This document shows positions 5,909 to 47,574 of a DNA stretch of 64,000 bases, piece by piece. This DNA is from Candidatus Poribacteria bacterium. Lineage in GTDB: Bacteria > Poribacteria > WGA-4E > WGA-3G. The stretch spans positions 124,001-188,000 of the forward strand of contig JAPPFM010000055.1 in assembly GCA_028821605.1 (NCBI GenBank). Direction: 5' to 3'. The position numbers and the translations under genes were made by a program. Each line of letters begins with the position of its first letter. Within the stretch, counting starts at the first letter, position 1. The notes below the pieces were generated by a model. That model was not told the origin of the DNA. It made no database searches and saw nothing but the letters and a program-made list of their open reading frames with translations.

Positions 5909-5932
5909 TTAACCGCAAGGAAAATTAGAAAA
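5909..5932 (+). promoter_or_regulatory. repeated start-proximal leader (copy 1)
   Basis: 24 bases ending directly at the rraA-like ATG, containing the ribosome binding core AACCGCAAGGAAAA, are identical to the bases directly before the murF start at 21828. A third copy with one mismatch over 22 bases precedes the ATG at 45680 on the minus strand. Confidence 0.8.
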
Positions 5933-21803: not shown

Positions 21804-21827
21804 TTAACCGCAAGGAAAATTAGAAAA
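21804..21827 (+). promoter_or_regulatory. repeated start-proximal leader (copy 2)
   Basis: 24 bases identical to the leader at 5909-5932, again ending directly at the start codon, here TTG of murF. It includes AAGGAAAA as the ribosome binding site. It supports TTG 21828 as the start. Confidence 0.8.
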
Positions 21828-44552: not shown

Positions 44553-45317
44553 TTACGCATCGCCGCCGGGGATCTCTGGCCAATTGTGCTCAGGTGAATA
44601 TCCTAAATCATCTGCTGCCTCTTTCCATGAAAAACGAGAATCTGCACGTCCGGCGACAGCGTTGTACGACCCGTATTTTACCGTCTGTGTCTCAACTGCA
44701 CGAGCAACACACTGTGCAACGTCCCTCGGATCTACGTAAACGAACCAAGGATCCGTTACAACGTCAGGGGCTGATGGACCTGGGTTCTGTCCGTCTCCGG
44801 CAATGACTCCCGGGCGAACGTGGATCACATCCAATCCGTGTGCCTGGTGATACGCTGCACCGATCTGCTCACCGAGGTACTTTGCGAGCGCATAGTAGAG
44901 ATCACCCGGTCCGAACTGGAAATCGTCACCCACCTCGTATGGCAGTTTTGCACTCGGAGCGGGAGGACACGTCGAGATACTCGAAATATTCACCAGTTTC
45001 TGCACGCCTTGTTTCACGCACGCTTCTGCTACGTTCCAAGTGCCTTTTACCATAACATCTGCAAATAACGAAGCGGGTTTATCGGAACGTCCGCGGACTA
45101 AGGCAACGAGATGCACAACAGCGTCTTGCCCTGCACACACGGCTTCAATTTCGGCGGGATTTGTCACGTCTGCCTTGATAAAAGTCGTATCTGCAAGCAC
45201 GCTGTCGGGTTCAACAAGATCGGTGAGCGTGAGTTGATATTCACCGTGCAGCCGGTCAATGATAAATTGCGCCAGATATCCGCTGGCACCCGTAATCAGA
45301 ATCTTTTCAATAGGCAT
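44553..45317 (-). CDS. NAD(P)-dependent SDR/epimerase family protein
   Basis: A 254-residue short-chain dehydrogenase of the extended, NAD-dependent epimerase type. The Rossmann turn is 'ILITGASGYLAQFIIDRL' (GxxGxxA), with 'ADVTNPAEIEAVCAGQDAVVHLVAL', and the catalytic Tyr/Lys is 'YYALAKYLGEQ'. It probably acts on a nucleotide sugar or similar substrate. The gene lies between the ArsC-like gene (22 bases upstream) and the methyltransferase (8 bases downstream). Confidence 0.87.
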   Translation of the reverse strand: MPIEKILITGASGYLAQFIIDRLHGEYQLTLTDLVEPDSVLADTTFIKADVTNPAEIEAVCAGQDAVVHLVALVRGRSDKPASLFADVMVKGTWNVAEACVKQGVQKLVNISSISTCPPAPSAKLPYEVGDDFQFGPGDLYYALAKYLGEQIGAAYHQAHGLDVIHVRPGVIAGDGQNPGPSAPDVVTDPWFVYVDPRDVAQCVARAVETQTVKYGSYNAVAGRADSRFSWKEAADDLGYSPEHNWPEIPGGDA

Positions 45318-45338: not shown

Positions 45339-45680
45339 TTAAATGAAGGGTGCTTCCGGGCTGTAGAGCGTTTCGTTGAAGCCGACGAGGAAAACATCTC
45401 CGCTTTGCACCGTCGGCGCACGCAGGCTGCCACTTCGTCCTATCACGGCTTTTAAAATTGATTCCCGTGCGTCTTCAGTTGGCACGAAGGTTTCTATCCG
45501 TCTTCCTTTCGCGACGACAATTCGCTCTGCACTGCCCATTAAATCCCATACGGCTGCTACATCCATTGCCTCTTTTCGCGCATCAGTCCGGTTTTCTGCT
45601 TGTAGATTATGTGTGTCAAGAAACTCTTGCACTTTTTTACATGAGTTTCAGCTGTTCCTAAAGTAAATCCAATCTATCAT
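45339..45680 (-). CDS. ArsC/Spx-like thioredoxin-fold protein with in-frame TGA (selenoprotein candidate)
   Basis: From ATG 45680 the frame reads 'MIDWIYFRNS', then TGA at 45650-45648, then 'NSCKKVQEFLDTHNLQ' and on to the stop at 45339, 113 codons with TGA read as an amino acid. Read through, the beta-1 strand 'DWIYF' and a UxxC (CxxC-like) redox pair fall exactly where ArsC/Spx family proteins need them. Later 'DARKEAMDVAAVWDLM' and cis-Pro-like 'LRAPTVQSGDVFLVGF' complete the fold. The ATG is preceded by the repeated AAGGAAAA leader. A GTG at 45632 gives a protein lacking beta-1 and has no binding site. Selenocysteine is plausible; a nonsense mutation is the alternative. Confidence 0.65.
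45620..45650 (-). promoter_or_regulatory. SECIS-like hairpin at the in-frame TGA
   Basis: Starting at the G of the TGA, GAAACTC (45649-45643) pairs perfectly with GAGTTTC (45626-45620), a 7-bp stem. The 16-base loop can close further (TGT with GCA) leaving AAAAAAGT with a GU in the apex. A bacterial SECIS lies directly 3' of the UGA and carries a G/U in its loop. Spacing to the loop is short compared with the classic fdhF element, so this remains a candidate. Confidence 0.4.
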
Positions 45681-45702
45681 TTTTTTAATTTTCCTTGCGG
45701 TT
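45681..45702 (-). promoter_or_regulatory. repeated start-proximal leader (copy 3)
   Basis: The 22 bases before ATG 45680 on the minus strand equal those before the rraA-like (5933) and murF (21828) starts with one mismatch, including AACCGCAAGGAAAA. It supports translation beginning at ATG 45680 rather than at GTG 45632. Confidence 0.75.
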
Positions 45703-45787
45703 CGGTGAAGTGGATTGGAGACTTCAAGTGCTTTCCCGTATATCCACTTTCCACTTGGTTCCAAGTTTCGCGTTTTTCTAATTTACC

Positions 45788-46795
45788 TTACAGGTCCTTC
45801 ACATGGATAAATCTGCCAGTGTCTCGGCTCTGGACGGCTGCATCAATTAGGGCGAGTGTTTCAATCCCATCGGCGAATGGCGAGCGAATCAGCGTTCTGT
45901 CCCCTGTTTCAATGGCACGAAGCCAGGCACCGGTTTTATCTAAGCCTAAACTGTTTTCGGAGACTGCCGGTTCATTGATAGTTTCGCCGTTGAGGTATCC
46001 ACGAATGGCATTTTCTGTCATATTCGCGTGGAGTCGCAAATGCGGTCCGACGACTTCAACCTCAAAACTAAAATTTTCGGTGCCGCAATGATTCATGTGT
46101 GTTCCGAAAACTCCGTTATCCAATTGATAGGTCATCTGAATAGCATTTTCTGCATCGAATTCGGTCCGTTCCAGTGCCATATTTTTAATGGCTAAAGCAT
46201 GTGCCTGCAGCGGTTTCGGATTGCCCATAACAAATCGAGCACAATCCAAGACATGCACTGCTTGTTCAGGCAAGGGACCACCACTTATCTCATACTGCAG
46301 GAACCATGGCGACATTCTGAAACTGAGGTAATAATTGACGGTGCAGACCGTCCGAACGAGGTGCACCGTCTCCGAAGCGATTAATGCCTTTAACCGTTCA
46401 TAGAGCGGATGATAGCGAAGTTGAAATCCGACAGCAGCGATGATGTCTGCTTTCTCAATGGCGGCAAGGCACTTTCTACCTTCAGCCATATTTAGGGCAG
46501 GAGGTTTCTCGACCATGACGGCGATGCCACGATCGCATGCCATCTGGATGGGCACAAGGCGGACAGGGGGTGGTGTTGTGATCACTACCCCGTCCATATC
46601 TACATCGAAAAAAGCATCTAAATCAGTAGTGGCAAGTGCGCCATCAGTATGCGTTGCGAGTTCGCGTGCTGCTTCAAGTTGTACGTCATGGACCGCAACG
46701 ATGCTCGCGCCGTACTCGGTTATCACTCTGAGATGATGTCTGCCCATATTGCCAGAACCGATAATGCCAATTGTCAATGGTTTTTGAGAGTTCAT
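45788..46795 (-). CDS. Gfo/Idh/MocA family oxidoreductase
   Basis: About 335 residues. The Rossmann domain opens with 'IGIIGSGNMGRHHLRVI' and 'AVMVEKPPALNMAEGRKCLAA' contains the EKP cofactor loop. 'PLPEQAVHVLDCARFVMGNP' is the C-terminal domain's conserved segment. NAD(P)-dependent oxidation of a sugar or polyol is the family activity. ATG 46795 overlaps the TGA of the upstream secreted protein (ATGA), so they are translationally coupled; an upstream in-frame start at 46816 lies inside that gene. Confidence 0.88.
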   Translation of the reverse strand: MNSQKPLTIGIIGSGNMGRHHLRVITEYGASIVAVHDVQLEAARELATHTDGALATTDLDAFFDVDMDGVVITTPPPVRLVPIQMACDRGIAVMVEKPPALNMAEGRKCLAAIEKADIIAAVGFQLRYHPLYERLKALIASETVHLVRTVCTVNYYLSFRMSPWFLQYEISGGPLPEQAVHVLDCARFVMGNPKPLQAHALAIKNMALERTEFDAENAIQMTYQLDNGVFGTHMNHCGTENFSFEVEVVGPHLRLHANMTENAIRGYLNGETINEPAVSENSLGLDKTGAWLRAIETGDRTLIRSPFADGIETLALIDAAVQSRDTGRFIHVKDL

Positions 46796-47574
46796 TTTAT
46801 TTTCAGGTCTCCCCACGTTACGGCGAGTTTGTCTTTGGGTTCAACAGGGAAGATGTTAAATTCTGGGGTGGTAACGAAAATGTTATCGAATTGCGCGTGG
46901 TGGGCGGCAGCACCGCGATTACCGCCTCGCGTGTAGAAACCGATCCTACCCTTTTCAAATCTTTTCTCATTATCGCTCCATTCACCCACAAAAACGAGAC
47001 TATTCCATTTCACACCAACCTTACCGAGGTATGCCTTAAATTTGTAGTTCTTGCGCACCTCAAACTTAACGCGGTACCAGACATTCTGCCTACGTTTTCT
47101 TTCGTCTGCGAACGGTGTTATTTTGACTGACCAGTTGTTCTCAAGGTTTACATGCCATCCGATGTGTTGTGGTGCGTACTTGGAGCCAGCGGTTGAGATC
47201 TCGTGCATGTAGAAATGCTTGTCGTTCTTCGCGTGGAAAACGAATCCCAATGAACCGCCATTTTTAGCGTTGAAATCGGCGTAGTAATCAAATTCCTCAG
47301 GGAAATTGATAAGATTCAATCCCGCGCCACCGCCCCAAATGTCGAGTACTTTTCTGCCCAGCACATCATGTCGGGTATCGTTATCTTTAGTGCTCCAACT
47401 CACGCGCGGTGTCCAGTTAGTGAGATCGATTTCTTGACGTTCAAAGTCGTCGTAGAATAAAATCTCGGCAGAACCTGTGCTAACACACAGCACAAGGATC
47501 AGGAAAATGGCATATTGTATGCCTAATCCTTTGATGAGGGCGGATAGTGAGGGAAATCCGTTGGAGATCATCAT
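46792..47574 (-). CDS. secreted jelly-roll protein with shared C-terminal tail
   Basis: A 260-residue protein with a signal peptide (about 1-36, 'YAIFLILVLCVSTGSAE'). The body is a LamG/DUF1080-like jelly roll: 'ILFYDDFERQEIDLTNW', 'GRKVLDIWGGGAGLN', 'EEFDYYADFNAKNGGSLGFVFHAKNDKH', 'VWYRVKFEVRKNYKFKAYLG' and 'GRIGFYTRGGNRGAAAHHAQFDNIFV'. It is a paralogue of the next gene upstream. It ends 'FPVEPKDKLAVTWGDLKIK', the shared tail. ATGA overlaps at both ends couple it to the upstream paralogue and the downstream Gfo/Idh enzyme. A glycan-binding or glycan-modifying role is an inference. Confidence 0.85.
   Translation of the reverse strand: MMISNGFPSLSALIKGLGIQYAIFLILVLCVSTGSAEILFYDDFERQEIDLTNWTPRVSWSTKDNDTRHDVLGRKVLDIWGGGAGLNLINFPEEFDYYADFNAKNGGSLGFVFHAKNDKHFYMHEISTAGSKYAPQHIGWHVNLENNWSVKITPFADERKRRQNVWYRVKFEVRKNYKFKAYLGKVGVKWNSLVFVGEWSDNEKRFEKGRIGFYTRGGNRGAAAHHAQFDNIFVTTPEFNIFPVEPKDKLAVTWGDLKIK

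What the first reader, a model, noticed from the sequence alone, without database searches (positions are those of the whole stretch)
45339..45680. Candidate selenoprotein: ArsC/Spx-like gene with in-frame TGA in a UxxC motif
Seen: from ATG 45680 to 45339 the frame is open except for TGA 45650-45648, which falls at the first redox position before N-S-C. A GAAACTC/GAGTTTC stem begins at the TGA and its loop holds AAAAAAGU. The ATG has a repeated AAGGAAAA leader shared with two real genes. Known: selenocysteine often replaces Cys in CxxC thioredoxin-fold proteins, and bacterial SECIS elements lie just 3' of the UGA. Inference: UGA is read as selenocysteine.
Basis: partly seen in the sequence, partly recalled or inferred. 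Interest (0 to 1): 0.8.

Follow-up and report, generated by a model that had tools for sequence, protein, structure and literature searches.

The report
Poribacterial selenoprotein related to ArsC/Spx
A small redox protein of a sponge-type bacterium (Candidatus Poribacteria) carries the rare amino acid selenocysteine, written as an in-frame 'stop' codon; the prediction holds up very well, but the protein family was already catalogued.

Summary
The frame 45680-45339 (-) is open except for TGA 45650-45648, at the first position of a U-x-x-C motif. The genome, a Candidatus Poribacteria by its relatives, has selA, selB, a UCA-anticodon tRNA-Sec next to selB, and a selD that itself contains an in-frame TGA. 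The gene occurs in 71 of 73 searched genomes of its order, always with exactly one TGA. Relatives in Desulfobacterota and Planctomycetota carry either TGA or TGC/TGT at that codon, and Cys-type genomes mostly lack selA (6 of 15 have it, against 32 of 34 TGA-type genomes).

Its GAAACUC/GAGUUUC stem exists but is not conserved. The element that fits the bacterial SECIS model is a hairpin at 45632-45613 with a GUU loop 23 nt after the UGA. It recurs in 82 of 88 unique selenocysteine-type sequences and in none of five Cys-type ones.

The protein belongs to a named family, NCBIfam NF041106 'ArsC family (seleno)protein' (121.7 bits, cutoff 85). It most likely works as a selenol/disulfide oxidoreductase with the ArsC/Spx fold; the substrate is unknown.

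The parts
45339..45680 (-). ArsC/Spx-fold selenoprotein gene (113 aa, U11-x-x-C14), NCBIfam NF041106
   Evidence: open apart from one TGA; NF041106.1 121.7 bits against cutoff 85; 71 of 73 order genomes, all with one TGA
45648..45650 (-). UGA codon read as selenocysteine (U11)
   Evidence: TGA in all Poribacteria loci read; TGC/TGT at the same codon in the five Cys-type homologues read
45613..45632 (-). Predicted bacterial SECIS hairpin GUGCAAGA-GUU-UCUUG(A)CAC; loop 45624-45622, 23 nt after the UGA
   Evidence: folds at -7.2 kcal/mol; hairpin in 82 of 88 unique Sec-type sequences and 0 of 5 Cys-type; synonymous sites frozen at codons +7 to +12
45620..45649 (-).
45688..45703 (-). Leader with ribosome-binding site (GAACCGCAAGGAAAAT), the 3' end of a dispersed genomic repeat
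44553..45317 (-). Downstream neighbour: NAD-dependent epimerase/dehydratase, 21 nt after the stop; probably co-transcribed
   Evidence: adjacent in most loci of the same family
45788..46816 (-). Upstream neighbour: Gfo/Idh/MocA oxidoreductase

Best explanation
The gene encodes a small thioredoxin-fold protein of the ArsC/Spx group in which the UGA at codon 11 is decoded as selenocysteine by SelB and tRNA-Sec, directed by a hairpin just downstream (GUU loop, 23 nt after the UGA). The selenolate of U11 most likely attacks an oxidised substrate (a disulfide, or another electrophile) and the resulting bond is resolved by C14, as in CxxC redoxins. Shown by sequence: the coding use of UGA, the Sec/Cys exchange, the full Sec machinery, the conserved hairpin, the family and the predicted fold. 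Inferred: the catalytic cycle. Unknown: the substrate and the reductant.
For: Sec machinery in the same genome: selA 600 bits, selB 353 bits, selD 359 bits with its own UGA in a CAGU motif, tRNA-Sec 78 bits with anticodon UCA near selB. All 71 Poribacteria homologues keep exactly one TGA; all 80 homologues from a second collection also have TGA there. The five Cys-type homologues read have TGC/TGT at that codon. selA is in 32 of 34 Sec-type genomes but 6 of 15 Cys-type (Fisher p 1e-4). Hairpin in 82 of 88 and 9 of 9 Sec-type sequences and 0 of 5 Cys-type. Synonymous identity 0.96 at codons +5 to +12 against 0.64 in the rest of the gene (p 5e-5). NF041106 membership. Fold: AlphaFold pLDDT 92, best PDB matches Spx and ArsC-related proteins; profile match to Spx over the full length, E 4e-6.
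Against: No protein-level evidence can be had here. The hairpin's energy alone is only moderately lower than that of synonymous random versions (z -1.4 for the window, mean -1.9 over the family). Six of 88 Sec-type sequences fall below 5 bp. Gene neighbours give no clue to the substrate.
Confidence: 0.95

Rival explanations
1. The TGA is a true stop; the real gene begins at GTG 45632, or the locus is a pseudogene or a sequencing error.
For: A mechanical ORF of 97 aa starts at GTG 45632.
Against: The ten codons before the TGA are under purifying selection (dN/dS 0.10) with invariant W4, R8 and nearly invariant Y6. The same TGA, and no other stop, is found in 71 species. Cys replaces it in other genomes.
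Confidence: 0.01
2. UGA is read as another amino acid, by a changed genetic code or by natural suppression.
For: Poribacteria are uncultured and the code has not been tested directly here.
Against: UGA ends other genes in the clade, including several copies of this gene (L047, L057, L058 end in TGA). The site is Cys in relatives, the SECIS hairpin follows it, and the full Sec machinery is present.
Confidence: 0.01
3. The SECIS is the reader's stem GAAACUC/GAGUUUC starting at the UGA, not the downstream GUU hairpin (the gene would still be a selenoprotein).
For: Very stable in this species (-11.4 kcal/mol, z -5.4); codon +1 is always AAC when Asn within the genus.
Against: Complete in only 37 of 88 unique sequences and 4 of 21 outside Poribacteria, against 82 of 88 and 21 of 21 for the GUU/GGU hairpin. 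Its loop lies too near the UGA for the published model (16-37 nt) and lacks G in the first two loop positions (model from PMC13188914).
Confidence: 0.06
4. The protein is a true arsenate reductase (ArsC).
For: Profile and fold kinship to ArsC; family name in NCBIfam and in the review.
Against: The residue before the predicted cis-proline is Ala in all 32 members (LRAP), where the Spx alignment shows Arg (LRRP). In E. coli ArsC that Arg binds arsenate (general knowledge, not tested here). No ars genes next to it in the loci annotated.
Confidence: 0.08
5. The protein is an Spx-like regulator that binds RNA polymerase and uses U11/C14 as a redox switch.
For: The nearest solved structures and profile hits are Spx; CxxC sits in the same place.
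Against: Only 18-22% identity; scores are far below the Spx cutoffs (20 bits against 152).
Confidence: 0.1

Closest known systems
NCBIfam NF041106 ArsC_rel_Se_1, 'ArsC family (seleno)protein'
   Same: Full-length match above the curated cutoff; UxxC at the N-terminal end; listed as 'Arsenate reductase-like protein, UxxC' in a 2026 review (PMC13188914)
   Different: Nothing essential; this is the poribacterial branch, Sec-only in the 71 matching genomes
'Arsenate reductase 2' (UxxC, cd03032) of the Global Ocean Sampling selenoproteome (PMC2398784)
   Same: Same motif and fold group; the review cites this study (its reference 61) for NF041106
   Different: Identity with the exact GOS sequences was not tested here
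Selenoprotein arsenate reductase of the Sargasso Sea (UxxS, PMC1088965)
   Same: Arsenate-reductase-type protein (COG1393) with Sec at the first active-site position
   Different: UxxS, not UxxC
Spx (Bacillus subtilis and others)
   Same: Fold, CxxC position, full-length profile alignment
   Different: Cys in place of Sec, Arg before the cis-Pro, about 20% identity, known transcription role

Membership tests
Bacterial selenoprotein | In-frame UGA kept across species, with Cys homologues at the same codon | tested here: met
Bacterial selenoprotein | SelA, SelB, SelD and tRNA-Sec in the genome | tested here: met
[quoted passage not shown]
   loop GUU at 23 nt, 8 bp with one bulge
Bacterial selenoprotein | SECIS folding energy at or below -7.5 kcal/mol (published model) | tested here: inconclusive
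   the hairpin region folds at -7.0 to -7.2 kcal/mol, just short of the limit; longer relatives pass
Bacterial selenoprotein | Selenium in the protein | not testable with these tools
   needs mass spectrometry or 75Se labelling
NCBIfam NF041106 | Score above the curated cutoff over the full model | tested here: met
   121.7 bits against 85, model positions 1-107
Pfam PF03960 ArsC | Score above the gathering cutoff | tested here: not met
   13.3 bits against 24 for this protein; 17 of 32 family members match at E up to 0.1, best 2e-10
Arsenate reductase (function) | Arg directly before the cis-Pro | tested here: not met
   Ala88 in all 32 members; alignment with Spx; which residue ArsC has there is from general knowledge
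Spx regulator | Score above the Spx model cutoff | tested here: not met
   20.1 bits against 152

The most novel reading that the evidence does not exclude
In this poribacterial genus the UGA region carries two mutually exclusive hairpins (the stable stem at the UGA and the GUU SECIS), so decoding of the UGA might be switched between termination and selenocysteine insertion.
Probability: 0.06. Interest if true: 0.5.

Novelty: new member of a known kind. Interest (0 to 1): 0.25.

Why it matters
It shows that a single-genome guess of a selenoprotein can be settled by comparison alone. It adds an order-wide, Sec-only branch of an uncharacterised redoxin family in Poribacteria. Ordinary ORF callers would miss the active site here: the mechanical 97-aa ORF starts after the UGA. 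The Sec-type and Cys-type pairs in Desulfobacterota and Planctomycetota give ready material for testing what selenium adds.

Tried and rejected
Rfam gave no hit on the gene region. A shuffle of synonymous codons among sequences had little power because the codons hardly vary. Gene neighbourhoods were compared across 80 loci: synteny holds only within the family in Poribacteria, and the neighbours annotated elsewhere are housekeeping, transport or other genes with no arsenic or redox partner. Other in-frame TGA frames in the window were scanned; the only long one, TGA 62958, merely precedes the start of an apparent aldehyde dehydrogenase gene (named from its sequence, no family search run) and is not a selenoprotein.

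Full report
The observation. The minus-strand frame from ATG 45680 to TAA 45339 has one interruption, TGA 45650-45648, and reads MIDWIYFRNS-U-NSCKKVQEFL.... A mechanical ORF list shows only a 97-aa ORF from GTG 45632, without the redox motif.

The organism. The closest named relatives of the gene, up to 88% identical, are all Candidatus Poribacteria genomes. The window lies in a 6.0-Mb assembly, 98% complete.

Selenocysteine machinery. The same genome holds selA (600 bits), selB (353 bits), selD (359 bits) and a tRNA-Sec over the Rfam cutoff with anticodon UCA, about 290 bases from selB. SelD itself contains an in-frame UGA in a CAGU motif, followed by a hairpin with a G-bearing loop.

Conservation of the UGA. 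In 85 Poribacteria genomes the family is found in 71, all within one order (71 of 73), and every match has exactly one stop inside, a TGA. All 80 loci from a second collection, which partly overlaps the first in species, have TGA at that codon; they include Desulfobacterota, Planctomycetota, SAR324 and a Denitrovibrio-like genome. dN/dS is about 0.10 before the TGA and 0.12 after it.

Cys forms. In the class around a Desulfobacterota genome and in Planctomycetota most matches have a TGA, but some are open. Five open ones were read, and all have TGC or TGT at exactly the TGA codon. selA is present in 32 of 34 genomes with the TGA form and in 6 of 15 with the open form (Fisher p 1e-4). The genomes are not independent, so the p-value is indicative only, and only five of the open forms were read base by base.

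The SECIS. Within the genus (36 genomes) synonymous codon identity is 0.96 at codons +5 to +12 and 0.64 in the rest of the gene (p 5e-5). Codons +7 to +12 are frozen, including Leu CTT 36 of 36 where other Leu codons are mostly TTA. This stretch forms GUGCAAGA-GUU-UCUUG(A)CAC at 45632-45613, with the loop 23 nt after the UGA. Across phyla the stem changes on both sides while the loop stays GUU or GGU: GUG/CAC becomes GCG/CGC or GCU/AGC, and L036 has CAAGC-GGU-GCUUG. A simple model (at least 5 bp, G in the first two loop positions, 16-37 nt from UGA) is met by 82 of 88 unique Sec-type sequences, by 9 of 9 further divergent ones and by none of five Cys forms. The published bacterial SECIS model is quoted from PMC13188914. 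It is nevertheless the more stable fold in this one species, and the two structures exclude each other; whether that matters is open.

The protein. NCBIfam NF041106 'ArsC family (seleno)protein' matches at 121.7 bits (cutoff 85) and matches all 32 diverse members tested. The 2026 review lists this family as 'Arsenate reductase-like protein, UxxC' (PMC13188914), and the Global Ocean Sampling study lists an 'Arsenate reductase 2' with UxxC (PMC2398784). AlphaFold gives a confident model (pLDDT 92); the best PDB matches are Spx and ArsC-related proteins, and a family profile aligns with Spx end to end (E 4e-6). Invariant residues are W4, R8, U11, S13, C14, K16, Q18, E19, L21, G59, G81, G84, L86, R87, A88, P89 and G100. 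The position before the presumed cis-proline is Ala, where Spx has Arg, which speaks against arsenate reduction of the ArsC type; the role of that Arg in ArsC is general knowledge, not tested here.

Function. The best reading is a selenol/disulfide oxidoreductase with U11 as attacking residue and C14 as resolving residue. Substrate and reductant cannot be told: neighbours are syntenic only among close Poribacteria (a Gfo/Idh/MocA oxidoreductase upstream, an NAD-dependent epimerase downstream), and the neighbours annotated elsewhere are unrelated. I put the selenoprotein identity at about 0.97 and the generic redox function at about 0.75.

Verdict. The family is already catalogued, so the novelty is low: a well-supported new member in Poribacteria.

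Noticed in passing
window 45688-45703 (-), 5910-5925 (+), 21805-21820 (+); loci L213-L242: A dispersed repeat, about 100 nt long, whose 3' end is CGAACCGCAAGGAAAAT-TAAAAA: 94 copies with at most one mismatch in the 6-Mb genome against none for the reversed pattern. In about two thirds of the 30 copies read it ends within a few bases of an ATG that opens an ORF of more than 200 aa, so it seems to supply a ribosome-binding leader to many genes. No Rfam match in five loci tested.
   Followed up: partly
window 45620-45649 (-): A very stable stem at the UGA (z -5.4) competes with the SECIS hairpin in this species and some relatives; its role, if any, is unknown.
   Followed up: partly
L076:1407-2442 (-): selD of this genome is itself a selenoprotein gene (CAGU, one in-frame TGA).
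   Followed up: yes
L125-L136: In other families of the order the selenoprotein gene has quite different neighbours.
   Followed up: no
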